This document shows, one piece after another, positions 10,600 to 42,595 of a stretch of 64,000 bases of DNA; within the stretch, counting starts at the first letter, position 1; the number at the start of each line of letters is the position of its first letter. A program made the position numbers and the translations under genes. The notes below the pieces were generated by a model. It searched no databases, was not told the DNA's origin, and saw only the letters and a list, made by a program, of their open reading frames with translations. Location of the stretch: contig CP051234.1 in NCBI GenBank assembly GCA_017792465.1, forward strand, positions 3,008,501-3,072,500, read 5' to 3'. The stretch is from Filomicrobium sp. (GTDB taxonomy: Bacteria; Pseudomonadota; Alphaproteobacteria; Rhizobiales; Hyphomicrobiaceae).

Positions 10600-12447
10600 A
10601 TGGGTTGGAATGGGAAAGTTCTCCGGGTGAACCTGACAAACGGGACGGTTCAGTCCGAGCCGCTCAACATGGATTGGGCGCAGAAGTATCTCGGGCAGCG
10701 CGGTCTGGCTTCGAAATACCTGGTCGAAGAAATCGATGCGACCTGCGATCCGCTGGGTCCGGATAACAAGATTATTTTCGCAACAGGTCCGCTGACGGGG
10801 ACCTGCGCTTCGACGGGTGGGCGCTATTCGGTCATTACCAAAGGGCCGTTGACCAACGCGATCGCGTGTTCGAACTCGGGCGGGTATTTCGGCGCTGAGC
10901 TGAAGTTTGCCGGTTGGGATATGATTATCCTGGAAGGCAAGGCGCCCAAGCCTGTCTATCTTTGCGTTATCGACGACAAGGTTGAGTTGCTGGACGCTTC
11001 AGAGATCTGGGGCACATCGGTTTGGAACGCTGACGAGTGGATCAAGGCCAAGCATCAGGATCCGATGATGCATGTCGCCACGATCGGCGTCTCGGGTGAG
11101 AACGGCGTTCTTTATTCCGCGATCGTCAACGACCTTCACCGCGCTGCCGGCCGTTCGGGCGTCGGTACGGTGCTTGGCTCGAAGAACGTCAAGGCGGTCG
11201 CTGTTCGCGGCACCAAAGGCGTCAAGGTCAAAGATCCGCGCGCGTTCTTGAAGGCGACTTCGGACGGCAAGAAAGTTCTGGCCGAAAACGCCGTGACTGG
11301 ATCGGGCCTGCCGAGCTTCGGAACACAGGTGTTGATGAACGCCATCAACGAAGCCGGCGCCATGCCGACGCGCAACAGCCGTGAAGTGCAGTTCGAAGGT
11401 GCGCACGACATTTCGGCTGAAGCGATGGCGACGCCGCGCAAGAGCGATGGCGAAAAGAACCTGCAAACGAACCAGGCCTGCTTTGGCTGCACGATTGCCT
11501 GCGGCCGTATCTCGAAGATCGACGAGAAGCATTTCACGGTCGTCAACAAGCCGGAGTATTGGCATTCCTCAGGCGGGCTTGAATATGAAGCCGCCTGGGC
11601 GCTGGGCTCCAACACCGGCATTAACGACCTTGAAGCCCTGACCTACGTGAACTTCATCTGCAACGAGCAGGGCCTTGATCCGATCTCCTTCGGCGCAACG
11701 GTCTCGGCGGCGATGGAGCTCTTCGAAATGGGCGTGCTGACCACCGAACACACTGGTGGACTCGAATTGAAATTCGGTTCGGCCGAGGCACTCGTGAAGT
11801 GCGTTGAGCTGACCGGCAAGGCGGAAGGCTTCGGCAAGGAATTGGGGCTGGGTTCGGCACGTCTGTGCGCGAAATACGGCCATCCGGAATTGTCGATGAC
11901 GGTCAAGAGCCAGGAATTCCCGGCTTACGATGCGCGCGCCATCCAGGGGATGGGCCTGACCTATGCAACCTCGAACCGCGGCGCCTGCCACCTGCGGTCC
12001 TATACGGTTTCGTCCGAAATGCTCGGCATTCCGGAAAAGACCGACCCGCTGGTGACCGAGGGCAAACCGGGTCTTGTCAAGGCGTTTCAGGATGCTACGG
12101 CGGCTGTCGATAGCTCCGGACTGTGCGTCTTCACGACGTTCGCCTGGACGCTCAACGACATCGCTCCGCAGGTCGATGCGGCTTGTGAAGGTGACTGGTC
12201 GCCGGAAAAGATGTTGGAAGTCGGCGAGCGCATCTGGAACATGGAGCGCATGTTCAACCACCGCGCCGGGTTCACCGCAAAGGACGACACCCTGCCACCA
12301 CGTCTGCTGAAAGAGGCTGCAGAAACTGGACCGGCCAAAGGTCTCGTCAGCGGTCTGGAAAAGATGCTGCCGGAATACTACCAGCTTCGCGGCTGGACGG
12401 CGGATGGCGTTCCGACCAACGAGACGCTGTCGCGTCTGGCGATCTAA
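10600..12447 (+). CDS. aorB: Aldehyde:ferredoxin oxidoreductase, tungsten subunit (AorB-like)
   Basis: A 615-residue member of the AOR family, which oxidises aldehydes to carboxylic acids at a tungsten bis-metallopterin centre. The N-terminal domain is complete ('WNGKVLRVNLT', 'GPLTGTCASTGGRYSV', 'KGPLTNAI'). The [4Fe-4S] ligands are Cys294, Cys297, Cys301 (CFGCTIAC) and Cys509 (GLCVF). The conserved 'DARAIQGMGLTYATSNRGAC' region binds the pterin. The start follows taggagaaacctcca. It is preceded by aorA (116 bp gap) and followed by aorC, so it is the catalytic subunit of a heterotrimer that can couple to NAD. The aldehyde substrate cannot be read from sequence, and known AORs of this type are broad. 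Confidence 0.92.
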   Translation: MGWNGKVLRVNLTNGTVQSEPLNMDWAQKYLGQRGLASKYLVEEIDATCDPLGPDNKIIFATGPLTGTCASTGGRYSVITKGPLTNAIACSNSGGYFGAELKFAGWDMIILEGKAPKPVYLCVIDDKVELLDASEIWGTSVWNADEWIKAKHQDPMMHVATIGVSGENGVLYSAIVNDLHRAAGRSGVGTVLGSKNVKAVAVRGTKGVKVKDPRAFLKATSDGKKVLAENAVTGSGLPSFGTQVLMNAINEAGAMPTRNSREVQFEGAHDISAEAMATPRKSDGEKNLQTNQACFGCTIACGRISKIDEKHFTVVNKPEYWHSSGGLEYEAAWALGSNTGINDLEALTYVNFICNEQGLDPISFGATVSAAMELFEMGVLTTEHTGGLELKFGSAEALVKCVELTGKAEGFGKELGLGSARLCAKYGHPELSMTVKSQEFPAYDARAIQGMGLTYATSNRGACHLRSYTVSSEMLGIPEKTDPLVTEGKPGLVKAFQDATAAVDSSGLCVFTTFAWTLNDIAPQVDAACEGDWSPEKMLEVGERIWNMERMFNHRAGFTAKDDTLPPRLLKEAAETGPAKGLVSGLEKMLPEYYQLRGWTADGVPTNETLSRLAI

Positions 12448-12453
12448 AGCATT

Positions 12454-12523
12454 GAAGGCCTCGTCAAGGTTGCTTGCGGGGCCTTCTTGATATTCAGCGG
12501 GCGACGGGACTGACCGCCGCCCG
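12454..12523 (+). terminator. Two hairpins between aorB and aorC
   Basis: The first hairpin pairs gaaggcc (12454-12460) with ggccttc (12480-12486) and is followed by ttga. A second GC-rich imperfect hairpin follows at about 12498-12523. The T tract is weak, so partial termination or an mRNA-stabilising element lowering aorC relative to aorAB is more likely than full termination. The 218-bp gap to aorC holds no gene. Confidence 0.45.
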
Positions 12524-12665
12524 TTCTTCATGATAACGACCGCCGCTCGATCTCCAGATGCTTATTGCGTAAGCTGGCGCCGATAGACGCTCACAACTCA
12601 CAAGCGCCACGACAACAAAGCAAAGAACCGGTAAGCACTGCGACTGCGGCCAAGGGGTAGGAACG

Positions 12666-13991
12666 ATGAACTACGTCATATTGGGAGCCGGGCCAGCCGG
12701 CGTCACCGCAGCAGAGACGCTGCGCAGTGTTGATCCGAATGCCTCGATCACTTTGATTGGAGGCGAGCCCGAGCCGCCCTACTCGCGTATGGCGCTGCCG
12801 TACTACATCTACGGCAAGATCGATGAGGGCGGAACGTATCTGCGCCAGGACCCTGAGCATTACGATAAGCTGCGCATCCGCTACATCATGGGCCGCTGCG
12901 GGGGCGTCGATTCTCGCGACAAGAAACTCTACCTGTCGACGGGTGAGGTTCTGCCCTACGACAAGCTTCTGATCGCGACGGGGGCGAGCCCGATTATGCC
13001 GCCAATTCCAGGTGCGAACCACGAAGGTGTCGAGACCTGCTGGACGCTTGATGATGGGCGCAAGATCCTGGAGCTGGCCGAAAAGGGATCGCCTGTCGTG
13101 CTTGTCGGGGCGGGCTTTATCGGATCGATTATTCTGGAAGCGCTTTACCTGCGCGGCTGCAAGATCACCGTCGTTGAGCTGGCGCCGCGCATGGTCGCGC
13201 GCATGATGGACGAGACGGCCGGCGGCATGCTGGGCCGCTGGTGCGAAGCCAAGGGCGTTCGGGTCGTCACCAACACACGGGTGACGAACATCGACAAGGG
13301 CGAAGACGGAGGTCCGCGCCTCAAGGTCGGCTTGTCGGATGGGACGGAAGCGCCGGCTGACTTGTGCGTTCTGGCTGTTGGCGTGCGCTCCAACACGGGC
13401 TTCCTTGTCGGCTCGGGTGTGAAGGTCAATACCGGCATCATCGTCGACGATTACCTGGAGACGACGGCACCCGACATCTACGCAGCTGGCGATTGCTGCG
13501 AGGGCATCGATCTTTCGACCGGTAAGCATGAGATGCTGGCAATCCAGCCGGTGGCCGTCGAGCACGGCCGCATCGCGGCGCTGAACATGGCCGGGCGTCA
13601 GCATAAGCATCGCGGCTCGCTCAACATGAACGTGCTCGATACCATGGGGCTGATTTCGTCGTCGTTCGGCTTGTGGCAGGGTGCGCAGGTCGGTCAGACC
13701 GCGAAGCTCGTCGATGAAGACAACTTCAAATACATGAAGCTCGAATTTGAGGGCGATCAGCTGGTCGGGGCGCAATGCGTCGGCATGACGGACCATGTCG
13801 GGATGCTGCGCGGTCTCATACAGACGGGCTTCCATCTGGGTGAGTGGAAGGACACGCTATTGCGGTCGCCCGAGCGGCTGCGAGAAGCCTATATCGCGGT
13901 TTCTCAGGGAGCTCCTTCGGCCGGTCCGATGGCGCCGCACGTGAATACGCCCAGGGACGGCTACGGCCATGCGGGGGCGACCGGCCACTAG
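12666..13991 (+). CDS. aorC: AorC-like NAD(P)/FAD oxidoreductase
   Basis: A 441-residue pyridine-nucleotide-disulfide-oxidoreductase-type flavoprotein. The FAD-binding GAGPAG lies at residues 7-12. The NAD-binding 'VVLVGAGFIGSIILEAL' is near residue 145, and the second FAD motif 'APDIYAAGDCCEG' near 265. Residues after 350 are a helical extension ending in a Pro/His-rich tail. It lacks the redox CxxxxC of disulfide reductases, as in NADH:acceptor oxidoreductases. As the third gene after aorA and aorB it should pass electrons from the Fe-S subunit to NAD, as shown for AorC of Aromatoleum. A nitrite-reductase-like or rubredoxin reductase role is the generic alternative, but context argues against it. 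Confidence 0.87.
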   Translation: MNYVILGAGPAGVTAAETLRSVDPNASITLIGGEPEPPYSRMALPYYIYGKIDEGGTYLRQDPEHYDKLRIRYIMGRCGGVDSRDKKLYLSTGEVLPYDKLLIATGASPIMPPIPGANHEGVETCWTLDDGRKILELAEKGSPVVLVGAGFIGSIILEALYLRGCKITVVELAPRMVARMMDETAGGMLGRWCEAKGVRVVTNTRVTNIDKGEDGGPRLKVGLSDGTEAPADLCVLAVGVRSNTGFLVGSGVKVNTGIIVDDYLETTAPDIYAAGDCCEGIDLSTGKHEMLAIQPVAVEHGRIAALNMAGRQHKHRGSLNMNVLDTMGLISSSFGLWQGAQVGQTAKLVDEDNFKYMKLEFEGDQLVGAQCVGMTDHVGMLRGLIQTGFHLGEWKDTLLRSPERLREAYIAVSQGAPSAGPMAPHVNTPRDGYGHAGATGH

Positions 13992-31624: not shown

Positions 31625-32815
31625 ATGTTGTTGCACGAGTTCCAGGCCAAGAAGCTGCTTTCTGGCTTCGGGATCGCTTGCCCTATGGGGCAGGTCGTTT
31701 CAACCCCTAAGGAGGCCCGCGCGGCGGCCGAGCGGCTTGGTTGTCGGCGATATGTCGTCAAGGGCCAGCTGCTTGCCAGTGACAGAGCGCTGCTTGATGC
31801 GATCCGGTATGCTTCCAGCCCGGCTGAAGTCGAAATGCAGGCGCGGCAGCTGATCGGAAAGTCTTTTGAAATTGCTGGTGGCGGCTTGCCTGACCAGACG
31901 GTCACCAAGGTTCTGGTCGAAGAGTTCGTCGAGACTTCGCGCGAGCTTTATGCGGCCGTCATGCTCGACAAGGATAGTGGTCAGGTCGTCTTATTGGCGT
32001 CGACGGCCGGCGGATCAGGCCTCGAAGCGCGGGCGGCGAGCGATCCTGAGGTGATCCGTTCGCGCAAGCTTCATTTCGATGGGCGGCGGCTGAGCGGAGA
32101 CTTCGACGGTCTCGCCAAGGAAATCGCCCCGGAACAAGGGCCCGCGCTGGTTTTGGCGCTGACTGAGTTCTTCCGAAACCTGACGGCAGTATTCGTGGCT
32201 CACGATGCTTTGCTCATTGATATCAATCCGATCGTTTTGAGCACCGAAGGCCAGCTGATCGCCGTTGATGCCAAGATTACGATCGACGACAACGCTTTGC
32301 CGCGCCAGCCTCAGCTAGAGGAAATGCGGCTTGAAAACGATTCCACCTTGCAGTTTGCGGAGGATCTGGAGGCGCAGCGGTTCCGGATCAACTATCTGAG
32401 CCTGGGCGGGGATATCGGGGTCGCCGTCAATGGCGCCGGGCTGGCGCTTGCCACCAACGATCTATTGATCGACTGCGGCGGCCGGCCGGCGAATTTCATG
32501 GATATCCGGACGACCGCGTCGAGCATGGATATCGCCCGGGGATTCGAGCTTTTGCTGTCAAATCCGGCGACGCGGGCGATCCTCGTCAACGTCCACGGGG
32601 GCGGCATGCAGCGGTGCGACACGATTGCAGAGGGGCTTGGTGTTGCGCTTCGGCGGCACAAGAAGAATTTGCCAATCGTCATTCGTCTGGCTGGCAACAA
32701 TTCCCAATTTGCGCGTACAGTACTAAAGAACAACGGTGTGAGCTATTACGAAGCGGATTCGATGCTGGATGCGGCACAGCGTGTTGTCGCGCTTTGCAAA
32801 GGGGAGGCGGCGTAA
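31625..32815 (+). CDS. Succinyl-CoA-synthetase-like acyl-CoA ligase, beta subunit (divergent)
   Basis: A 396-residue ADP-forming CoA ligase beta subunit: ATP-grasp domain (1-230, 'LLHEFQAKKLLSGFGIACP', metal site 'LLIDINPIVLS') and flavodoxin-like power-helix domain (240-396, 'VNGAGLALATNDLL'). It is related to SucC and to malate-CoA ligase MtkA. The active-site loops differ: the FLDVGGGA loop is 'FMDIRTTAS' (291-299), and the loop that holds the carboxylate (GGIVRC in SucC) is 'HGGGMQRC' (324-331), one residue longer. The substrate is therefore probably not succinate. Start 31625 has gggaggtg at good spacing; a GTG nine bases earlier overlaps that site. The alpha gene begins immediately after its stop. 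Confidence 0.85.
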   Translation: MLLHEFQAKKLLSGFGIACPMGQVVSTPKEARAAAERLGCRRYVVKGQLLASDRALLDAIRYASSPAEVEMQARQLIGKSFEIAGGGLPDQTVTKVLVEEFVETSRELYAAVMLDKDSGQVVLLASTAGGSGLEARAASDPEVIRSRKLHFDGRRLSGDFDGLAKEIAPEQGPALVLALTEFFRNLTAVFVAHDALLIDINPIVLSTEGQLIAVDAKITIDDNALPRQPQLEEMRLENDSTLQFAEDLEAQRFRINYLSLGGDIGVAVNGAGLALATNDLLIDCGGRPANFMDIRTTASSMDIARGFELLLSNPATRAILVNVHGGGMQRCDTIAEGLGVALRRHKKNLPIVIRLAGNNSQFARTVLKNNGVSYYEADSMLDAAQRVVALCKGEAA

Positions 32816-33688
32816 ATGGCGATTTTGATCAATCCGGAGACAAAGGTTATTTGTCAGGGCATGACCGGACGCACTGCGACCTTTCATTGCGCGCGTATGC
32901 AATCCTATGGAACGCAGCTTGTCGGCGGCGTCACGCCCGGCAAGGGCGGCCAGCGCCATCTCGATCTGCCGATCTACGATACCGTCGCGGAGGCCGTCGA
33001 GGAGACGGGCGCGGATGCAACTTTGGTTTTCGTACCGCCGAGCAATGCCGGGGCTGCGATTATCGAGGCCATCGAGAGCGACATCGGGGTGATTGTCTGC
33101 GTAACCGAGCGGGTGCCAGTTCTCGATATGGTGCGCGTCAGGCAAGCGCTTGACGGCTCAAACAGCGTGCTGATCGGGCCGAATTCGCAAGGTCTGTTGG
33201 CGCCTGGAATCGGTCAGCTCGGCGTCATGTCGACGGTCGATGCGCGTCGGGGCCGGATCGGCATCGCCTCGCGCTCAGCCTCTTTGACAAGCGAAATCGT
33301 GGCGCAAACGACGCAAGCCGGGCTGGGCCAATCGACGACGGTGGGTGTCGGCGGTGATCCCGTGCATGGGATGTCACTTGCTGACTGCGTGGAACGCTTT
33401 ATAGACGACGACGAAACTGAAGGCATCGTCATTGTCGGGGAGATCGGCGGAACCGAAGAGGAGCATGTTGCTGCGCTTCTGGACCGCCGGAAGACCGACA
33501 AACCAGTCGTGGCTCTGGTCGTCGGGCGTCATGCTCCGCCAGAGCGCCGAATGGGACATGCCGGAGCGCTGGTTAGTGGCCTCGCCGGCTCCGCCAGTGC
33601 GAAAATCGACAGGTTGCGGTCAGCAGGAGTAATCATTGCGCCGCATGCTGGAAGCATCGGGGACACGATGCGATCGGCGCTGAATTGA
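32816..33688 (+). CDS. Succinyl-CoA-synthetase-like acyl-CoA ligase, alpha subunit (divergent)
   Basis: A 290-residue alpha subunit that binds CoA and carries the phosphohistidine. The fold markers 'TKVICQGMTG', 'VGGVTPGKGG' and the His248 motif MGHAGAL are intact, so catalysis through phospho-His is expected. Compared with E. coli SucD, the substrate loops have changed: PNCPG is PNSQG (122-126), SRSGTLTYE is SRSASLTSE (152-160), and TGSQGT is TGRTAT. These loops contact the acyl group and CoA. The start abuts the beta-subunit stop, so translation is coupled. fdh1B starts 10 bp after this gene, which links the ligase to formate or C1 metabolism. Malate-CoA ligase (MtkB) is a weaker alternative. 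Confidence 0.85.
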   Translation: MAILINPETKVICQGMTGRTATFHCARMQSYGTQLVGGVTPGKGGQRHLDLPIYDTVAEAVEETGADATLVFVPPSNAGAAIIEAIESDIGVIVCVTERVPVLDMVRVRQALDGSNSVLIGPNSQGLLAPGIGQLGVMSTVDARRGRIGIASRSASLTSEIVAQTTQAGLGQSTTVGVGGDPVHGMSLADCVERFIDDDETEGIVIVGEIGGTEEEHVAALLDRRKTDKPVVALVVGRHAPPERRMGHAGALVSGLAGSASAKIDRLRSAGVIIAPHAGSIGDTMRSALN

Positions 33689-33698
33689 AGGGAAGATT

Positions 33699-35399
33699 AT
33701 GAGCGAGATGACATTCAAGGGCGGAAAAGCGATCCATCCAGGTTCGGGTCGCCGGAAAGCGGTGCCCTTTCCCAAAGGCCGGGTGCTCGCGCCGGGAGAA
33801 AAAGAGGCCGTCGCGGAACTGATCGGTCCACCGCCCTATGAGCGTCCTCTGCTGATCGAATATCTGCACAAGATCCAGGACGCTGAAGGCTGCCTGCCTG
33901 CCGGGTCTCTGCACGGGCTGGCGACGTTGATGAAGCTTCCGATGGCGGAAGTCTACGAAGTGGCGACGTTCTACGCGCACTTTGATGTGGTGCCCGATGA
34001 TGCCGCGCGGCCGGCGGCGACGACCATTCGCGTTTGTGAGAGCCTGTCGTGCATGATGGCCGGTGCCGAAGAGCTGATTTCGGCTCTGGAAGCCGAAGAC
34101 ATGCCGAACGTTCGCGTCGTTCGCGCGCCGTGTGTCGGGTCCTGCCATACCGCGCCTGTGTGCCATATCGGCCATCACCACGTCGATCATGCGGACGTCG
34201 AGAAGGTCAAAGAGTTGGCGCTTGCCGGCGAGACTCATCCGACCATCCCGGAATATCAAACGCTGGGCGACTATATCGAGCAGGGCGGCTACAAGATGCT
34301 GCGTGCCTGCCTTGCCGGTGACAAGACGGTCGATGAGGTTATTGCTGCTTTGTCAGACGGCGGGTTGCGCGGTCTGGGCGGCGCAGGCTTCCCGACGGGT
34401 CGCAAGTGGGGCTTTGTGCGGGCGGAAAAGGGCCCGCGCCTGATGGCGGTGAACGGCGACGAAGGCGAGCCGGGGACGTTCAAAGACCGCTACTATCTCG
34501 AAACCCGTCCGCATCAGTTCCTGGAAGGCATGCTGATCGCCGCTTGGGCGGTGGAGGCGGAAGAAGTCTTCATCTACATGCGGGATGAATATCCGGCCGT
34601 TTTGAAAATCCTCGCGAACGAATTGCCGAAGCTCGCAGCCGCCGGCCTTACGACGCATACCAAGGTTTCGATCCGCCGTGGCGCCGGGGCTTATATCTGC
34701 GGCGAAGAAAGCGCGATGATCGAGTCGATCGAGGGTAAGCGGGGGTTGCCACGGCATCGTCCGCCATATGTTGCTCAGGTCGGCATTTTCGATCGACCGA
34801 CGCTCGTCAACAACGTCGAGACGCTCTACTGGATCCCGAAAATCATCGAAAAAGGCCCGGAATGGTTTGCCGAACAGGGTAAGAACGGCGCCAAAGGGGC
34901 TCGCTCCTATTCGGTTTCGGGCCGCGTCAAGAATCCAGGCGTCGTTCTGACGGCTGCGGGATCGACTGTCGAAGAATTGATCGAGCTGTGCGGCGGCATG
35001 GCCGATGGCCACGCGTTCAAAGGATATCTTCCCGGTGGCGCATCAGGCGGCATTTTGCCTGCTTCGATGGGCGATATTCCGCTCGATTTCGGGCAGCTTG
35101 AGAAGCATGGCTGTTTTGTCGGGAGCCATGCCGTTGTTATCCTGTCGGATAAGGACGACATGAAAGATGTCGCGCTCAACCTGATGCGTTTCTTCGAGGA
35201 TGAAAGCTGCGGGCAGTGTACGCCGTGCCGGAATGGTACCGAAAAGGCCGTGCAGTTGATGAGCCAGAAGAACTGGGATCGTCCGATGCTCGAAGATCTG
35301 TCTCAGGTGATGACTGACGCATCGATTTGCGGTTTGGGGCAGGCAGCCTCCAATCCGCTGAAAAGCGTAATCAAGTTCTTCCCAGAGGACTTGTCGTAA
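33699..35399 (+). CDS. fdh1B: NAD-dependent formate dehydrogenase beta subunit (NuoE-NuoF fusion, Fdh1B)
   Basis: A 566-residue fusion. Residues 1-165 are a NuoE-like thioredoxin-fold [2Fe-2S] domain with Cys113, Cys118, Cys145 and Cys149. The rest is NuoF-like: an FMN/NADH site ('GLGGAGFPTGRKWGF', 'NGDEGEPGTFKDR', 'RRGAGAYICGEESAMIESIE'), an SLBB domain, and the terminal [4Fe-4S] motif 'ESCGQCTPCRNGT'. It takes electrons from the alpha subunit and reduces NAD. The one-gene fusion is the form seen in the tungsten-containing Fdh1 of Methylobacterium, whereas Rhodobacter and Cupriavidus have separate FdsG and FdsB. It follows the CoA-ligase alpha gene by 10 bp. The 140-bp gap to fdh1A has no gene and no fdsC/fdsD. 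Confidence 0.93.
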   Translation: MSEMTFKGGKAIHPGSGRRKAVPFPKGRVLAPGEKEAVAELIGPPPYERPLLIEYLHKIQDAEGCLPAGSLHGLATLMKLPMAEVYEVATFYAHFDVVPDDAARPAATTIRVCESLSCMMAGAEELISALEAEDMPNVRVVRAPCVGSCHTAPVCHIGHHHVDHADVEKVKELALAGETHPTIPEYQTLGDYIEQGGYKMLRACLAGDKTVDEVIAALSDGGLRGLGGAGFPTGRKWGFVRAEKGPRLMAVNGDEGEPGTFKDRYYLETRPHQFLEGMLIAAWAVEAEEVFIYMRDEYPAVLKILANELPKLAAAGLTTHTKVSIRRGAGAYICGEESAMIESIEGKRGLPRHRPPYVAQVGIFDRPTLVNNVETLYWIPKIIEKGPEWFAEQGKNGAKGARSYSVSGRVKNPGVVLTAAGSTVEELIELCGGMADGHAFKGYLPGGASGGILPASMGDIPLDFGQLEKHGCFVGSHAVVILSDKDDMKDVALNLMRFFEDESCGQCTPCRNGTEKAVQLMSQKNWDRPMLEDLSQVMTDASICGLGQAASNPLKSVIKFFPEDLS

Positions 35400-35539
35400 T
35401 TGGCGGATCTAGAAGGTCCGTTCGAAGGTTTTGAATTGAAGGGCTGCGTGGTTCTCACTACCGCGCGATTGCAGGTCTGGCGGACAGGCAACGCGGTCAC
35501 ACAGCAGCCCAAGCAACGTTATGATGGCTGAGGCGTCTT

Positions 35540-38326
35540 ATGACAGACAAGATCAAGTTTGAACTCGACGGCCGCGAAGTAGAGGCTGAAGCGGGCGAGA
35601 CGATCTGGCAGGTCGCTAAGCGCGAAGGGGTGTCGATCCCCCATCTGTGCTGGCTTCCGCAACCTGGCTACCGGGCTGACGGCAACTGCCGGGCATGTAT
35701 GGTTGAAGTCGAAGGTGAGCGCGTGCTGACGGCGTCGTGTCAGCGCAAGGCTGCCGAAGGCATGAAGGTCAAGTCGGCCAGCGAGCGGGCCAAGAAATCC
35801 CGTGAGATGGTTTTCGAGCTTCTCTTGGCAGACCAGCCAGCACGTGAAGAAAGTCATGACCCGTCTTCGTCGTTTTGGACGTGGGTCGATGATATGGGAA
35901 TTGCAGCCACCAGCCGCTTCCCGAAAGCCGACCGTCCTGCGGCCGACTCCACCCATTCAGCGATCGCCGTCAATATGGATGCCTGCATCAACTGCGGTCT
36001 GTGCGTCCGTGCCTGCCGCGAGGTGCAGCATAACGACGTGATCGGGATGGCCTACCGCGGCCATGGCGCCAAGCCCGTCTTCGATTTCGATATCGGAATG
36101 GGTCATTCGACATGCGTTGCTTGCGGTGAGTGCGTGCAGGCGTGTCCGACCGGCGCGTTGATGGAAGCCAACCTGCTGGACGAAAAAGGCAAGCGGGTTG
36201 AATTTGAAGAAAAGAGCATCGACTCGCTTTGCCCGTATTGCGGTGTCGGCTGCCAGACGCGCGTGCATGTCAAGGACAACAAGATCCTTTACGTCGATGG
36301 GCGCAATGGTCCGGCCAACGAAAACCGTCTTTGCGTCAAGGGCCGCTTCGGCTTCGATTACATTCACCACCCAGATCGCATCACCAAGCCGCTCATTCGC
36401 CGCGAAGGCGTGCCGAAAGACGGTGAGATGCAGTTGCGCAAGGAAGACATTTCATCGGTCTTCCGCGAAGCGACCTGGGAAGAGGCGCTTGATTTTGCCG
36501 CGTCCGGCTTGAAGAAGATTAGCGACGAGCGCGGCGGTTCGGCGCTGGCCGGCTTCGGTTCGGCGAAGGGTTCGAACGAAGAAGCCTATCTGTTCCAGAA
36601 GCTGATCCGCCAGGGCTTTGGCACCAACAACGTCGACCATTGCACCAGGCTTTGCCACGCGTCGTCTGTTGCAGCACTTATGGAAGGTCTTAATTCTGGC
36701 GCGGTGTCGGCGCCGTTCATGGCGGCCGCCGATGCAGAGTGCATGATTGTCATCGGCGCACGTCCGCACCAGAACCACCCGGTTGCCGCGACTTACCTTA
36801 AGGACGCAGCAGCGCGTGGCGCCAAGCTCATCATCATGGACCCGCGTGGTCATAACGGCGGCTTGGAGCGTTATGCTTCGCATCACCTGCAGTTCCGTCC
36901 GGGCCATGACGTGGCGCTCTTGAACGCCATGCTGAACGTGATCATCACCGAAGGGATGGTCGATATTCAGTACGTCCAGGCGCACACCGAAGGCTACGAG
37001 CAGCTCAAGAAGAAAGTTGCGGAATTTACGCCGGAAGCGATGGAGCCGGTTTGCGGTATCGATGCGAAGACGATCCGCGAAGTTGCCCGTCTTTATGCCC
37101 GCTCCGAGCGCTCGCTCATTTTCTGGGGCATGGGCGTCTCGCAGCATACGCACGGCACTGACAACGCGCGCTGTCTGATTGCGCTGGCGCTTACCACCGG
37201 TCAGATCGGCCGGCCGGGTACGGGACTGCATCCGTTGCGTGGTCAGAACAACGTGCAGGGCGCTTCCGACGCGGGCCTCATTCCGATGGTCTATCCCGAC
37301 TACATCTCGGTCGAGGATCCGGCGGTGCATGCCAAGTTCGAGCGCCTCTGGGGCAAGAAACTTGATCCGAAGCGCGGTCTGACGGTCGTTGAGATCATGG
37401 GGGCCATCCATAACGACGAGATCGTCGGCATGTACGTGATGGGTGAGAACCCGGCGATGTCGGACCCTGACGCGCATCACGCGCGCGCGGCGTTGGCGAA
37501 GCTGCACCATCTCGTCGTGCAGGATATCTTCGTCACCGAAACGGCGTGGCATGCTGATGTCATTCTTCCGGCTTCGGCGCATGCCGAAAAGTGGGGGACG
37601 TTCACCAACACGAACCGGCAGGTTCAGCTGGCACGTCCGGTCGTTACTCCGCCGGGTGAAGCACGCCAGGATTGGGAATTGGTTCAGTCGCTAGCCACGC
37701 GTGTGGGGCTCGATTGGAACTACAAGGACGTCGGGGAAGTATTCACCGAGATGGCGTCGGTGATGCCGTCGCTCGATAACATTACCTGGGAGCGGCTGCT
37801 CGATGAGGGCGCTGTCACCTACCCGTGCGACGATCCGGAAAAGCCCGGCAACGAGATCATCTTCTCCAACTCGTTCCCGACGCGTTCGGGGCGTGCGAAG
37901 ATTGTTCCAGCCGAGCTTTTGCCGCCGGACGAGCTTCCCGATTCCGATTTCCCGATGGTGCTGACGACAGGGCGTCTTCTGGAGCACTGGCATACCGGTT
38001 CGATGACGCGGCGCGCCAGCAATCTGGATTCGCTTGAGCCGGAAGCAATTGCCGGTCTCAACCCACGAGACATGGGCCGGATGGGCATTGAGCCGGGTAG
38101 CTTCGTCGATGTCACCACGCGGCGCGGCACGGTGCGTCTGAAGACGCGGGCAGACCGTGACGTTGCGGAAGGAATGGTGTTCATTCCGTTCTGCTTTGCG
38201 GAGGCTTCGGCCAACATGCTGACGAACCCGAAGCTCGACCCGATGGGCAAGATTCCGGAGTTCAAGTACTGCGCGGCCCGGGTCGAAAAGGTCGACGCAG
38301 ACGCGCCTGCGGAAGCGGCTGAATAA
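35540..38326 (+). CDS. fdh1A: Formate dehydrogenase catalytic alpha subunit (Fdh1A)
   Basis: A 928-residue molybdopterin oxidoreductase that oxidises formate to CO2. Order of domains: NuoG-like N-terminus with a [2Fe-2S] site ('CWLPQPGYRADGNCRACMV') and a His/Cys cluster region; two [4Fe-4S] groups ('CINCGLCVRAC', 'CVACGECVQAC'); the proximal [4Fe-4S] site 'CPYCGVGCQ'; then the bis-MGD domains. The metal ligand is Cys372 with the adjacent His373 in 'CTRLCHASS'. It is Cys and not selenocysteine. Metal (Mo or W) cannot be read from sequence; W is inferred from resemblance to Methylobacterium Fdh1. Length is close to that protein (about 990) and to FdsA (about 960). It works with Fdh1B in the cytoplasm. 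Confidence 0.94.
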   Translation: MTDKIKFELDGREVEAEAGETIWQVAKREGVSIPHLCWLPQPGYRADGNCRACMVEVEGERVLTASCQRKAAEGMKVKSASERAKKSREMVFELLLADQPAREESHDPSSSFWTWVDDMGIAATSRFPKADRPAADSTHSAIAVNMDACINCGLCVRACREVQHNDVIGMAYRGHGAKPVFDFDIGMGHSTCVACGECVQACPTGALMEANLLDEKGKRVEFEEKSIDSLCPYCGVGCQTRVHVKDNKILYVDGRNGPANENRLCVKGRFGFDYIHHPDRITKPLIRREGVPKDGEMQLRKEDISSVFREATWEEALDFAASGLKKISDERGGSALAGFGSAKGSNEEAYLFQKLIRQGFGTNNVDHCTRLCHASSVAALMEGLNSGAVSAPFMAAADAECMIVIGARPHQNHPVAATYLKDAAARGAKLIIMDPRGHNGGLERYASHHLQFRPGHDVALLNAMLNVIITEGMVDIQYVQAHTEGYEQLKKKVAEFTPEAMEPVCGIDAKTIREVARLYARSERSLIFWGMGVSQHTHGTDNARCLIALALTTGQIGRPGTGLHPLRGQNNVQGASDAGLIPMVYPDYISVEDPAVHAKFERLWGKKLDPKRGLTVVEIMGAIHNDEIVGMYVMGENPAMSDPDAHHARAALAKLHHLVVQDIFVTETAWHADVILPASAHAEKWGTFTNTNRQVQLARPVVTPPGEARQDWELVQSLATRVGLDWNYKDVGEVFTEMASVMPSLDNITWERLLDEGAVTYPCDDPEKPGNEIIFSNSFPTRSGRAKIVPAELLPPDELPDSDFPMVLTTGRLLEHWHTGSMTRRASNLDSLEPEAIAGLNPRDMGRMGIEPGSFVDVTTRRGTVRLKTRADRDVAEGMVFIPFCFAEASANMLTNPKLDPMGKIPEFKYCAARVEKVDADAPAEAAE

Positions 38327-38479: not shown

Positions 38480-40420
38480 TTGGAGGCGGTCGAGGAGAAG
38501 ACTGCGCCTCAGGCAGAAGTTGCCGAGGGCGATGATGAGCGCCTGAAGCGGGCGCTGAGCCAGGCGGAAATTTGCCTCAGTGGCCTCGATCCGGAACTCA
38601 GCCGGCGCATACGTGCGGAGATCATTGCCCGCGGGATCCTCATCGTCTTTGAGCACTACTATGTGCGTTCACGCGAGATCCCGTTCCTCTACAAAAAGCT
38701 GTTTGAGACCTGCAACTGGCCTGAGACCTTCAAGCTTTCCAAGGAGCGTTTGACGATCTATGGGCGCTATCTCAGCGCGTTCGTTCCGATCCTGCAGCGA
38801 TATTGGCCGCAGCAAATTCCCGACGAGCGCGGCTTCTGGGTGGAAATCGAGGCGGCATATCTGGATTTCATTCACCGGCGCTATGAGGCCGACCTCGCAT
38901 TCGCATTCCTGCGTTCGATGCGGCGGGCGGTTCGGCAGAGCGAGTGGGCGCCGGTCGCCTATTACGCGGGCCGCGATGCGGACGGGCCTGACGAGGAAAT
39001 CGGCCATGACGTGACGCGGACTTTTCCGGCGCACGGCAAAGTCAGCTCGGGCGCGATGGCCAACGTCTTGAGCGTTCCGAATTTTGAGGCGCAATTCCGG
39101 GATCTGGCCGGCGATGCCGAGCTTTTGGCTGACCTTGTCAACGCGGAACTGAAGTCTCGCAACGCGGTCATCGATAGCGCGTGTGCGATCCAGGTCATCA
39201 ACTCCGGTTTCTTTCGTAACCGCGGTTGCTATATCGCGGGGCGCGTGTGGTACGAGACGGCGGATGGTTCTGGCGATGGCGAGACAGCCGATGGCGAAGA
39301 GAGCGCCGGGGGTGGCGATGGCGCAAAGCCAAAGGCGCGCAAGTTTCTCCCCTTCGTCATCGCCCTACTCAATGAAAAGAACTCCGGCATCTATGCGGAC
39401 GCGGTGATCTTCGAGGATGATGAGATCCACCGGATCTTTTCTTCGGCGCTGGCGAATTTCCATGTCACTGAGCCCGCCTATCACCAGCTGGCGCGATTGC
39501 TCCACGAACTGATGCCGAAGCGGCCGCTCGGGCTCCATTATTCGACGATCGGTTTTAATCATGTCGGCAAGGTTGCCGTCATGCGCGAGTTGATGGCTGA
39601 GCACGCCAGGACGGACGAGTTGATCGATTTCGCGGTTGGTTCGCGCGGGACGGTGGCGATTGGTTTTTCCATGCCGTCGTCGCGCTACGTGCTGAAGGTG
39701 ATCCGCGATACGCCGGCGGAAGGCTATAAATGGGACGCGTTCGACGGGCCTGAGGCGATCCTGCGCAAATACGGGTTCGTCCACGACATGGATCGGGCGG
39801 GTTCGATGCTCGACAACGTCATCTATTCCAACGTGCGGCTTGAACGCTCGTGGTTTGCGCCGGAGCTCCTGCAGGAGTTTGCCAGGGCGGCGCCGAGTTC
39901 GGTGATCATCCTGCACCGCTATGTTTTGTTCAAACATCTCATCGTGCAGATGAAGCTCGTGCCGCTACCGGTCTATCTCAAGACGGCCGATTTCGAGGCA
40001 GGCAAGCGGGCGATTGAGGAACTGGGCATCTGCATCCAGAACAACGCGGCCGCCAACATCTTCAACAAGGATCTCGATGCGCGCAATTACGGCGTCAGCC
40101 GGATCGGAAAGATCTATCTTTTCGACTACGATGCGGTCGAGCCCTTGAGCGGCGTCAAGGTGCGCACCAACGTCGACCGGTTCGATGGGGAGGAGGACAT
40201 CCCCGACTGGTTCTTCGAGACGGGAACGATCTTTCTGCCGGAGGAAATGCTTGTCGGGCTTCGCATCGACGATCCCGACTTGCGACGGCATTTCCGGGAA
40301 GCGAATGCCGAACTTATGAGTCTGGGATACTGGGAAGGCATGCAGCGGGCGCATGCAAAAGGCTTTGTGCCCAAGGTGCGATCCTACTTGCCCGAAAGGT
40401 CGTTGCCCAAACGAGGCTGA
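38480..40420 (+). CDS. aceK: Isocitrate dehydrogenase kinase/phosphatase AceK
   Basis: A 646-residue bifunctional enzyme that phosphorylates and dephosphorylates isocitrate dehydrogenase and so controls the split between the TCA cycle and the glyoxylate shunt. The N-terminal regulatory domain is followed by the kinase fold, with the AceK-type ATP loop 'AVGSRGTVAIGF' near 385 and 'YVLKVIRD'. Later come 'YSNVRLERSWFAPELL', 'NNAAANIFNKDLDARNYGVSR' split by helix, and 'KIYLFDYDAVEPL', which carries metal ligands. A TTG start at 38480 is preferred, with gggagg six bases upstream. Here it follows fdh1A by 154 bp in the same direction, and no aceA or aceB is nearby. The length is slightly above E. 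coli AceK (578) because of a Gly/Glu-rich insert near 265-290. Confidence 0.92.
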   Translation: MEAVEEKTAPQAEVAEGDDERLKRALSQAEICLSGLDPELSRRIRAEIIARGILIVFEHYYVRSREIPFLYKKLFETCNWPETFKLSKERLTIYGRYLSAFVPILQRYWPQQIPDERGFWVEIEAAYLDFIHRRYEADLAFAFLRSMRRAVRQSEWAPVAYYAGRDADGPDEEIGHDVTRTFPAHGKVSSGAMANVLSVPNFEAQFRDLAGDAELLADLVNAELKSRNAVIDSACAIQVINSGFFRNRGCYIAGRVWYETADGSGDGETADGEESAGGGDGAKPKARKFLPFVIALLNEKNSGIYADAVIFEDDEIHRIFSSALANFHVTEPAYHQLARLLHELMPKRPLGLHYSTIGFNHVGKVAVMRELMAEHARTDELIDFAVGSRGTVAIGFSMPSSRYVLKVIRDTPAEGYKWDAFDGPEAILRKYGFVHDMDRAGSMLDNVIYSNVRLERSWFAPELLQEFARAAPSSVIILHRYVLFKHLIVQMKLVPLPVYLKTADFEAGKRAIEELGICIQNNAAANIFNKDLDARNYGVSRIGKIYLFDYDAVEPLSGVKVRTNVDRFDGEEDIPDWFFETGTIFLPEEMLVGLRIDDPDLRRHFREANAELMSLGYWEGMQRAHAKGFVPKVRSYLPERSLPKRG

Positions 40421-41483: not shown

Positions 41484-42515
41484 CTAGTTGGGCGGGACCG
41501 GGCCGGCTGTGACTTTGAGGAGTTCGATCGTCATATCCCAACGCCTGTGTTTTTCTCTCTCGTTCTGCCAGTAGCCCATGAGCTCTTGGCCGGTCAGCAG
41601 TTTGCCGCCGAGACTGTTTTTGGCGCGATAGCCCTGCCATTCGGGTGAGTTGAAAAGGTTCTTGAAGAGTGCTTCGTAGAACTGCTTCGCGTCGCTCGAC
41701 ATGTCTGGTGCGCCGACGACTGAGCGCTGCATGTAATAGTGAAACGGCATTCCGGTTTCCGTCAGCGTCGGCGTCCTCTTGAATTGCTGCAGGCGGGCAG
41801 GCGTGATGGCGACGATGGGTTTCGTCAGACCTTCAGCGAAATACTTGGCTTGTTCGGACGGGTTGTTGACGGTTGAATCGCACTTGTTCTGGACGAGTTC
41901 CTTGGCAACGGCGCCGCCGCCCTTCATTGGGCGGTACTGCATGTTGAGCCCGTACATGGTGTTGAAGAAGTCGGTGAGGAGGTTGTCTTCAGCGCCCTTT
42001 CCGGTTCCCGACATGATCCAGCCGTTGCCTTTCTTGCGCGCGGCTTTGACGAAGTCATCCATGGAGTTGATGTCTTTGCGATCGGCGTTCACCCACAGAA
42101 GGAAGACATCTTCGGCCAGCCTGGCGATGGGCGTGAACTTGGAGATGTCGATCTTGAGGTCGGGGCTGCGGATCGGGGTCGTATAGAAGCTGTTGAGCGT
42201 GAAAAGAATGGCGTGGTCGTCGCCTGCCATTCCTTGCAGAGCGGCCATGGCTTCGCCGCCGGATTTGCCGGGGATGTTGACGATTTCGAAGGGGACGTTG
42301 ACCAGCTTGCGGTCGGTCATGGTTTTGACTAGGAAGCGGACCGCTTTGTCGGCGCCACCGCCTTTGCCAGCCATGACGATGAATTTGATTGGCTTCGTCG
42401 GCTGCCAAGCGGCGGCCGGCTTAGACAATGCAAACGCTGCCGAAGCCGCCAGGAGAAGCGCAAAGGCGACACTCGTCACGAACGGAACTCGGACTCTACC
42501 AGCTACTGTCGGCAT
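41484..42515 (-). CDS. Tripartite tricarboxylate transporter substrate-binding protein (TctC/Bug family), orphan
   Basis: A 343-residue periplasmic binding protein. A signal peptide (basic start, hydrophobic stretch about 10-30, cleavage near 'KPAAAWQ') precedes a two-lobed Bug domain. 'PTKPIKFIVMAGKGGGADKAVR' (split over the strand and P-loop-like turn) is the family N-terminus. Start 42515 follows agaggaaac; the frame opens at 42557. No tctA/tctB membrane genes are adjacent, so the protein is an orphan, as many Bug proteins are, and may serve as a sensor partner or share a distant transporter. Ligand (often a carboxylate) is unknown. Confidence 0.85.
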   Translation of the reverse strand: MPTVAGRVRVPFVTSVAFALLLAASAAFALSKPAAAWQPTKPIKFIVMAGKGGGADKAVRFLVKTMTDRKLVNVPFEIVNIPGKSGGEAMAALQGMAGDDHAILFTLNSFYTTPIRSPDLKIDISKFTPIARLAEDVFLLWVNADRKDINSMDDFVKAARKKGNGWIMSGTGKGAEDNLLTDFFNTMYGLNMQYRPMKGGGAVAKELVQNKCDSTVNNPSEQAKYFAEGLTKPIVAITPARLQQFKRTPTLTETGMPFHYYMQRSVVGAPDMSSDAKQFYEALFKNLFNSPEWQGYRAKNSLGGKLLTGQELMGYWQNEREKHRRWDMTIELLKVTAGPVPPN

Positions 42516-42595
42516 GTTTCCTCTTTCTTCTCGTTCCACGCCGCGTGGCGAACGCATCTCTTCATGACGTAGTGTCTATCAGAGGATTGCTTCGA

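What the first reader, a model, noticed from the sequence alone, without database searches (positions are those of the whole stretch)
31625..38326. Divergent succinyl-CoA-synthetase-like ligase fused by operon layout to formate dehydrogenase
Both ligase subunits abut each other and sit 10 bp before fdh1B. The phospho-His (His248 alpha) and ATP-grasp are intact, but the loops that hold the acyl group are changed: PNCPG to PNSQG, SRSGTLTYE to SRSASLTSE, FLDVGGGA to FMDIRTTAS, and the GGIVRC loop is one residue longer (HGGGMQRC). These sites define succinate or malate use in SucCD and MtkAB, so the substrate is probably different. The FDH neighbour suggests a C1 or C2 acid (for example formate, glyoxylate or oxalate). 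That choice is inference.
Basis: partly seen in the sequence, partly recalled or inferred. Interest (0 to 1): 0.72.

Follow-up and report, generated by a model that had tools for sequence, protein, structure and literature searches.

The report
Probable oxalate-activating CoA ligase
Two genes that databases file as the Krebs-cycle enzyme succinyl-CoA synthetase most probably encode an ATP-driven enzyme that attaches oxalate to coenzyme A, the first step by which these bacteria would feed on oxalate.

Summary
The observation mostly holds. Beta (31625-32815) and alpha (32816-33688) of a succinyl-CoA-synthetase-like ligase abut, and FdhB starts 10 nt later. The phospho-His is kept and every flagged loop is changed. 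One correction: the ATP-grasp is not wholly intact (Gly-rich loop replaced, Glu197beta is Asp).

The pair is neither SucCD nor MtkAB. Its host (genus Filomicrobium) holds separate SucCD, MtkAB and SauCD-like pairs. It belongs to a separate clade (beta support 99, alpha 88) with a near-fixed signature: GPNSQG, SRSA[S/T]LTSE, FMDIRTTA, HGGGMQ.

FDH linkage is one case of a wider rule. In 65 of 80 relative loci the ligase lies within 10 kb of oxalate genes (oxalyl-CoA decarboxylase, formyl-CoA transferase, oxalyl-CoA reductase-like, glyoxylate carboligase, oxalate/formate antiporter), against 1 of 40 SucCD and 0 of 11 MtkAB control loci. The shared intermediate is oxalyl-CoA.

No activity was tested. 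The 64 kb window itself shows only FDH and a TctC-like receptor with the ligase; the genome's other oxalate genes lie about 40 kb away or further.

The parts
31625..32815 (+). ligase beta subunit (396 aa; ATP-grasp plus CoA-ligase domain), proposed oxalate:CoA ligase beta
32816..33688 (+). ligase alpha subunit (290 aa; CoA-binding plus CoA-ligase domain, phospho-His248)
31754..31804 (+). beta ATP-grasp stretch VVKGQLLASDRALLDAI: Lys, Gln and Arg kept, Gly-rich loop lost
32219..32233 (+). beta DINPI: Glu197 to Asp (E. coli numbering), Mg ligand Asn199 kept
32492..32521 (+). beta signature NFMDIRTTAS, aligned with the GGGA stretch of SucC (Arg in place of Gly)
32588..32620 (+). beta signature NVHGGGMQRCD, one residue longer than SucC
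33176..33193 (+). alpha signature GPNSQG
33269..33295 (+). alpha signature SRSASLTSE
33554..33571 (+). phospho-His loop GHAGAL
33699..35399 (+). FdhB, NAD/FMN subunit (fused NuoE-NuoF) of a formate dehydrogenase
35540..38326 (+). FdhA, Mo/W catalytic subunit of the formate dehydrogenase
41484..42557 (-). TctC-like periplasmic receptor (PF03401), 60% identical over 291 aa to the TctC that is divergent from the ligase in oxalate loci of relatives; part of the system by inference only

Best explanation
The pair is an ADP-forming oxalate:CoA ligase (oxalyl-CoA synthetase) of the succinyl-CoA synthetase superfamily. Beta binds Mg-ATP and phosphorylates alpha His248; the phosphate passes to oxalate at the alpha/beta interface, and CoA displaces it: oxalate + ATP + CoA gives oxalyl-CoA + ADP + Pi. 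[quoted passage not shown] or it is reduced to glyoxylate by a PanE2-type reductase for growth. Shown here: sequence, clade, signature, gene company. Inferred: substrate, direction, use of ATP, co-transcription.
For: (1) Separate clade from SucCD, MtkAB and SauCD-like pairs, all of which the same genome also holds. (2) The signature changes fall, by my alignment, on the power-helix tips and loops used to compare substrate sites in solved relatives. (3) 65 of 80 relative loci hold a core oxalate gene within 10 kb, against 0 of 20 SucCD loci of the family, 1 of 20 SucCD loci of the order and 0 of 11 MtkAB loci. A second draw of 20 ligase loci through alpha gave 18 of 20; 7 of the 20 were on contigs not in the first set, and all 7 hold a core gene. 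(4) Representatives pass curated cut-offs: Oxc, Frc, OxlT, Gcl, hydroxypyruvate isomerase, tartronate semialdehyde reductase. (5) Some loci carry only the reductive branch (PanE2-like, Gcl), others the decarboxylating branch (Oxc, Frc, FDH); what both need is oxalyl-CoA. (6) Frc passes its cut-off in 21 of 24 ligase genomes and 25 of 79 others of the family, p = 1.3e-6, not corrected for kinship. (7) The window's genome also has Frc, a PanE2-like gene, a Tct-like transporter, OxlT and formate-THF ligase. (8) Purifying selection: dN/dS 0.05-0.24 for beta (13 of 21 pairs computable) and 0.04-0.10 for alpha (14 of 21).
Against: No activity was measured. No oxc, frc or panE2-like gene lies in the 64 kb window; 15 of 80 loci show no core oxalate gene, 9 of these with FDH genes, some on short contigs. 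The window's genome has no Oxc over the curated cut-off, only a divergent TPP enzyme beside Frc. True SucCD also lies in 18 of the 80 ligase stretches (17 with a core gene), so nearness to oxalate genes is not unique to the ligase in some families; and in one genome (G177, L214) SucCD sits beside a Gcl/PanE2-like cluster with no ligase in the stretch and no alpha over 52% in the genome. G059, 85% complete, has Oxc and two Frc but no clade alpha or beta found. The Gly-rich ATP loop is lost in the Filomicrobium betas read, and Mg ligands are changed in L063 and L064, the first with an in-frame stop in the six-frame match. Frc alone could form oxalyl-CoA. The marker panel was taken from ligase loci, so the counts are not blind; the 80 loci are the best 80 of 100 and come from 72 assemblies.
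Confidence: 0.72

Rival explanations
1. The ligase works on formyl-CoA, in the ATP-yielding direction: formyl-CoA + ADP + Pi gives formate + ATP + CoA, feeding formate to the FDH next door.
For: In Filomicrobium and several Hyphomicrobiaceae the next gene is FdhB (15 of the 68 loci with alpha beside beta), and formyl-CoA hydrolase, assumed for one oxalate route, is said to lack a gene (PMC10192776, passage).
Against: 9 alpha-beta loci have the PanE2-like gene as next recognised gene and 4 have Gcl; 6 of the 9 and all 4 show neither Oxc nor FDH in the stretch held, so no formyl-CoA source. Frc, in 39 of 80 stretches, already makes formate. The signature loops are the same in both kinds of locus.
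Confidence: 0.1
2. It runs in reverse: the PanE2-like enzyme oxidises glyoxylate to oxalyl-CoA and the ligase converts oxalyl-CoA to oxalate with ATP gain.
For: A PanE2 homologue of Cupriavidus necator is put forward as a probable CoA-acylating glyoxylate dehydrogenase (PMC7486775, passages); the superfamily is reversible (established knowledge).
Against: Uptake genes (TctA-like in 22, OxlT in 12 of 80) and Gcl (19 of 80) sit in the ligase stretches, which points to import and use of oxalate.
Confidence: 0.07
3. Another small dicarboxylate or 2-oxo acid (glyoxylate, tartronate, mesoxalate, malonate) is the substrate.
For: Tct-type transporters carry various carboxylates (recalled); the loop changes do not name an acid.
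Against: OxlT, Oxc and Frc representatives pass curated models for oxalate, oxalyl-CoA and formyl-CoA proteins.
Confidence: 0.07
4. A diverged succinate or malate:CoA ligase that merely resides in these clusters.
For: Alpha passes one SucD model (NF004230, 351.7 over 336); 2 plasmid relatives are annotated as sucC; true SucCD lies in 18 of the 80 ligase stretches.
Against: Beta fails all three models it matches (329/370, 318/375.6, 274/604); separate clade and signature; true SucCD and MtkAB are present in the genome.
Confidence: 0.04

Closest known systems
SucCD, succinate:CoA ligase (ADP-forming)
   Same: fold (query TM-score 0.70-0.88 to the 24 best SCS beta chains), alpha/beta layout, phospho-His, Glu of alpha, Mg ligands Asn199 and Asp213
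   Different: substrate-side loops; 49% (alpha) and 33% (beta) identity to the same genome's SucCD; gene company
MtkAB, malate:CoA ligase of the serine cycle
   Same: superfamily, two subunits
   Different: fails NF010647 (274 against 604); the MtkAB of the genome lies elsewhere beside ppc-like and serine-glyoxylate aminotransferase-like genes, names recalled
SauCD and SqwKL, ADP-forming sulfoacetate:CoA ligases
   Same: precedent for a two-part ADP-forming ligase that activates a C2 acid (PMC12890257, passages)
   Different: the genome's SauCD-like pair has other loops (GPNTAG, SRSGSLGTL, GGEAYT), a separate clade and a SauS neighbour
AAE3 oxalyl-CoA synthetases of plants
   Same: proposed product, oxalyl-CoA (starts of abstracts in a listing)
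   Different: AMP-forming acyl-activating family, unrelated fold (recalled); no such Pfam domain in the window pair
Formyl-CoA:oxalate and acetyl-CoA:oxalate CoA-transferases (Frc, YfdE)
   Same: make oxalyl-CoA (PMC3720670, passages)
   Different: class III CoA-transferases, no ATP; Frc coexists with the ligase in 39 of 80 stretches

Membership tests
ADP-forming acyl-CoA synthetase (SCS) superfamily | ATP-grasp, CoA-binding and CoA-ligase domains | tested here: met
   PF08442, PF02629 and PF00549 over cut-off; model matches SCS beta
ADP-forming acyl-CoA synthetase (SCS) superfamily | phospho-His and stabilising Glu of alpha; Lys and Mg ligands of beta | tested here: met
   His248 and Glu209 of alpha; Lys46, Asn199, Asp213 of beta by E. 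coli numbering
ADP-forming acyl-CoA synthetase (SCS) superfamily | Gly-rich ATP loop and Glu197 of beta | tested here: not met
   loop replaced, Glu to Asp in the window copy; both kept in many clade members. This lowers the claim of a standard ATP site, not of the fold
SucCD | curated beta cut-offs | tested here: not met
   NF001913 329.1 of 370; TIGR01016 318.1 of 375.6
SucCD | curated alpha cut-offs | tested here: inconclusive
   NF004230 351.7 over 336; TIGR01019 349.3 under 353.2
SucCD | groups with SucCD in trees | tested here: not met
   clade on its own side of a branch, SH-aLRT 99 (beta, 45 rows) and 88, not starred (alpha, 35 rows)
SucCD | activity on succinate | not testable with these tools
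   needs an assay
MtkAB | malate:CoA ligase beta model | tested here: not met
   274 of 604; own MtkA 699
SauCD | groups with the SauS-linked pair | tested here: not met
   separate clade; SauS lies beside the other pair
Oxalate:CoA ligase, ADP-forming (proposed) | conserved company of oxalate genes | tested here: met
   65 of 80 loci against 1 of 51 controls; for the window copy itself not met, no core oxalate gene in the 64 kb window
Oxalate:CoA ligase, ADP-forming (proposed) | oxalate-dependent oxalyl-CoA formation | not testable with these tools
   needs an assay
AMP-forming oxalyl-CoA synthetase (AAE3) | AMP-binding enzyme domain | tested here: not met
   no such Pfam match for alpha or beta

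The most novel reading that the evidence does not exclude
A dedicated ADP-forming oxalyl-CoA synthetase family of the Hyphomicrobiales, in which one alpha serves interchangeable betas: one beta is encoded with FDH (burning oxalate), another with a PanE2-like reductase (building from oxalate), so that beta choice would steer oxalate between energy and biomass.
Probability: 0.35. Interest if true: 0.78.

Novelty: new variant of a known kind. Interest (0 to 1): 0.64.

Why it matters
Oxalate is a common plant and fungal acid. A 2023 survey states that the enzyme assumed for the first step of bacterial oxalotrophy, oxalate CoA-transferase EC 2.8.3.2, has had no gene since its description in 1961 (PMC10192776, passage). 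The formyl-CoA transferase cycle makes oxalyl-CoA only as fast as formyl-CoA is formed, so reducing oxalyl-CoA to glyoxylate for growth drains it; an ATP-driven ligase would refill it (inference). If right, genes now named sucC and sucD could be renamed by a short signature, and the route becomes testable with two genes. An ADP-forming oxalyl-CoA maker would also interest those who build oxalate or formyl-CoA pathways.

Tried and rejected
Alpha identity alone as a family test across the order: below about 56% it mixes with SucD (L193 and L194, fetched as candidates, were SucCD), so I did not use the 118 of 397 count. A first longest-ORF gene caller misread GC-rich loci and was replaced by tblastn and GC3-based calls. 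A FastTree run rooted on E. coli gave unclear support (alpha 0.35, beta 0.96) and was replaced by IQ-TREE. The exact signature pattern was found in 2 of 398 genomes of the phylum sample and 1 of 385 of the class sample, own genome included in both; about 45 and 5 of these were of the same order, so this only says that the signature is rare elsewhere. My first SucCD control (0 of 20) came from one family alone; on re-reading I saw that SucCD lies in some ligase stretches, so I added an order-wide control (1 of 20) and a second ligase draw, and dropped the pooled p-value. The model of beta confirms the fold but cannot place oxalate. Prior art was looked for; no title or abstract start listed there speaks of an ADP-forming oxalate ligase. 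Two likely papers (oxalate assimilation in Methylobacterium; oxalotrophy in Bradyrhizobium) are not held, so an earlier mention there cannot be excluded.

Rows dropped before counts: trees and motifs left out loci L001-L008 and L013-L042 (duplicates of longer stretches), hits with stops or under 260 (alpha) or 350 (beta) residues, and identical rows. The trees used thinned sets: 61 of 135 betas and 50 of 132 alphas. The beta model used 27 of the betas. In one search, 13 of the 20 ligase stretches lie on contigs already in the set of 80.
Full report
What is there. The window lies in a 4.47 Mb single-contig genome. The genus appears to be Filomicrobium: contigs of several same-genus handles match Filomicrobium records by length. 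Beta (31625-32815) and alpha (32816-33688) abut, and FdhB (33699-35399) and FdhA (35540-38326) follow on the same strand. FdhA matches PDB 7e5z/7vw6 formate dehydrogenase at 1479 bits. An AceK-like open frame starts 153 nt after FdhA. The flagged loop changes are all present and His248 is the phospho-His. The claim of an intact ATP-grasp needs correction.

Not SucCD, not MtkAB. Beta scores 329.1, 318.1 and 274.2 bits against curated SucC, sucCoAbeta and malate-ligase models with cut-offs 370, 375.6 and 604. Alpha passes one of two SucD models. The same genome holds a SucCD and an MtkAB whose beta passes the malate model with 699 bits, beside ppc-like and aminotransferase-like genes (names recalled). 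It holds a SauCD-like pair beside SauS (787 over 600 bits) and an Xsc piece (680 over 620 in one of two models), with a Pta-like gene (name recalled). It also holds a lone beta of the window's kind. In trees the window kind is one side of a branch: 45 betas with SH-aLRT 99 and 35 alphas with 88, the latter not starred.

A near-fixed signature. Over 80 alphas and 89 betas of the clade the loops are nearly uniform and differ from those of 36 SucD, 30 SucC, 11 MtkB, 11 MtkA, 4 and 4 SauCD-like rows and E. coli SucCD. In the 27-row beta alignment R295, T296, T297, A298 and H324-Q329 never vary. A published comparison of related enzymes used the tips of the two power helices and nearby loops as reference points around the bound acids (PMC11494057, section 9 read). 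By my alignment, which no call checked against a structure, the changed loops are those. An Arg at the beta helix tip would suit a second carboxylate close to the first (inference).

Company. A scan with beta kept the best 80 of 100 relatives, from 72 assemblies: Hyphomicrobiaceae, Bosea, Afipia, Methylopila, Hansschlegelia, Mesorhizobium, Phyllobacterium, Labrys and others. Within 10 kb, where the contig allows, 65 of 80 hold at least one of Oxc, the TPP enzyme that stands in its place, Frc, PanE2-like reductase, Gcl or OxlT. Controls: 0 of 20 SucCD loci of the family and 0 of 11 MtkAB loci (a few stretches shorter than 19 kb), and 1 of 20 SucCD loci drawn across the order. A second draw of 20 ligase loci, through alpha, gave 18 of 20; 13 repeat contigs of the first set, and the 7 new ones all hold a core gene. 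Counts in the 80: PanE2-like 42, Frc 39, TctA-like 22, FdhB 21, Oxc 19, Gcl 19, TPP enzyme 15, OxlT 12. Representatives pass curated models: Oxc 1017 over 739, Frc 712 over 504, OxlT 646 over 335, Gcl 1176 over 711, hydroxypyruvate isomerase 387 over 353, tartronate semialdehyde reductase 405 over 341. PanE2 is named by position and by likeness to the published oxalyl-CoA reductase role (recalled, and PMC7486775 passages); curated models call it 2-dehydropantoate 2-reductase. The names TctA, TctB and GntR are recalled; TctA of L085 and L012 matched no NCBIfam model.

Against exclusivity. True SucCD (60% identity or more) lies in 18 of the 80 ligase stretches, 17 of which hold a core oxalate gene; of the 62 without SucCD, 48 hold one. 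The single positive control, L214, shows SucCD beside Gcl, Hyi, reductase and a PanE2-like gene with no ligase in the stretch, in a genome whose best alpha is 52% identical. So in some families SucCD itself neighbours glyoxylate and oxalate genes, and such clusters can do without this ligase.

A typical locus is L085: IclR-type, Frc, Oxc, GntR-like, TctA, TctB and TctC on one strand, divergent from beta, alpha, FdhB and FdhA. In Bosea and Afipia the ligase instead precedes Gcl, Hyi, reductase and PanE2-like genes. In 38 of the 68 loci with alpha beside beta no panel gene follows on the same strand within about 1.1 kb; FdhB follows in 15, PanE2-like in 9, Gcl in 4, OxlT in 2. The decarboxylating and reductive branches share one input, oxalyl-CoA, hence the reading as an oxalate:CoA ligase.

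The window copy. All 9 Filomicrobium genomes held have FdhB right after alpha; 3 of 15 other family genomes with the ligase do. In the Filomicrobium stretches fetched around alpha no Oxc, Frc or PanE2-like gene was found, nor in the 64 kb window. In the window's genome the second beta, a PanE2-like gene, Tct-like genes, GntR-like, a TPP enzyme, Frc, a formyltransferase-like gene and formate-THF ligase (933 over 652 bits) form an island at 2.987-3.000 Mb; the ligase is at 3.040 Mb. An OxlT passes its cut-off at 4.186 Mb. A TctC-like gene 3.2 kb after FdhA is 60% identical to the oxalate-locus TctC. For the window copy the substrate is therefore inferred from its clade and genome, not from direct neighbours other than FDH.

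Genome-level association. In 103 family genomes, 24 carry the alpha at 60% identity or more. Frc is over cut-off in 21 of these and in 25 of the other 79 (p = 1.3e-6, kinship not corrected). The three misses are drafts: two show a short Frc piece at a contig end (G004, G006), one only a weak match and 67% completeness (G007). Oxc is over cut-off in 32 of 103, and in only 8 of the 24 ligase genomes. G059 has Oxc and two Frc but no ligase found.

One alpha, two betas. In 12 of 80 loci a clade beta has no alpha within 300 bp; 7 are followed by a PanE2-like gene and 5 by FdhB. In two 98%-complete genomes (G091, G093) the only clade beta and the only clade alpha found lie about 12 kb apart on one contig, so they must pair in trans if the enzyme works. 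The window's genome shows one alpha and two betas of this kind. That betas share an alpha is inference.

Function of the window beta. The Gly-rich loop is lost and Glu197 is Asp, but dN/dS among Filomicrobium is 0.05-0.24 for beta (13 of 21 pairs; dS saturated in 8) and 0.04-0.10 for alpha (14 of 21), so the gene is kept. Beta evolves faster than alpha. The model has mean pLDDT 89 and matches SCS beta chains. Whether it still uses ATP as SucCD does is open.

Judgement. Ordinary in fold and mechanism; new in probable substrate and in the gene cluster it explains. Confidence 0.72 for oxalate activation, unchanged by the added control.

Noticed in passing
L012:14836-16581 (own genome 2993.8-2995.6 kb): A TPP enzyme between a GntR-like gene and Frc, 24% identical to Oxc, below the cut-offs shown, best PDB match 2-hydroxyacyl-CoA lyase. 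In 80 ligase loci Oxc (19) and this enzyme (15) each occur always with Frc and never together: a candidate replacement oxalyl-CoA decarboxylase.
   Followed up: partly
L012:8924-10261, and 12 of 80 relative loci: Clade betas without an adjacent alpha, followed by a PanE2-like gene or FdhB.
   Followed up: partly
L120:12109-12882, L138:4464-5261, L102:17796-18647: A FAH-family hydrolase of about 257-283 aa recurs in the ligase loci; role unknown.
   Followed up: no
L011:1-13628 (own genome about 3.36-3.37 Mb): SauCD-like ligase with SauS, Xsc, a Pta-like gene (name recalled) and Tct-like genes: probable sulfoacetate use.
   Followed up: partly
38480-40420: AceK-like isocitrate dehydrogenase kinase/phosphatase after FdhA, found there in several Filomicrobium genomes; below its NCBIfam cut-off (424.9 of 488) but over both Pfam ones.
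   Followed up: no
10600-13991: Aldehyde ferredoxin oxidoreductase-like gene followed by a PadH-like FAD oxidoreductase, both below curated cut-offs.
   Followed up: no
L063 and L064 betas; G067:C3:1241677-1242807: Clade betas of two family genomes have changed Mg ligands, one with an in-frame stop in the match, though Frc and Oxc persist.
   Followed up: no
L157:635-3301 (own genome 2997.1-2999.8 kb): Formyltransferase-like gene and formate-THF ligase directly after Frc.
   Followed up: no
18 of 80 ligase loci, e.g. L098, L119, L147; also L214: True SucCD lies within about 10 kb of oxalate or glyoxylate genes in several families.
   Followed up: no
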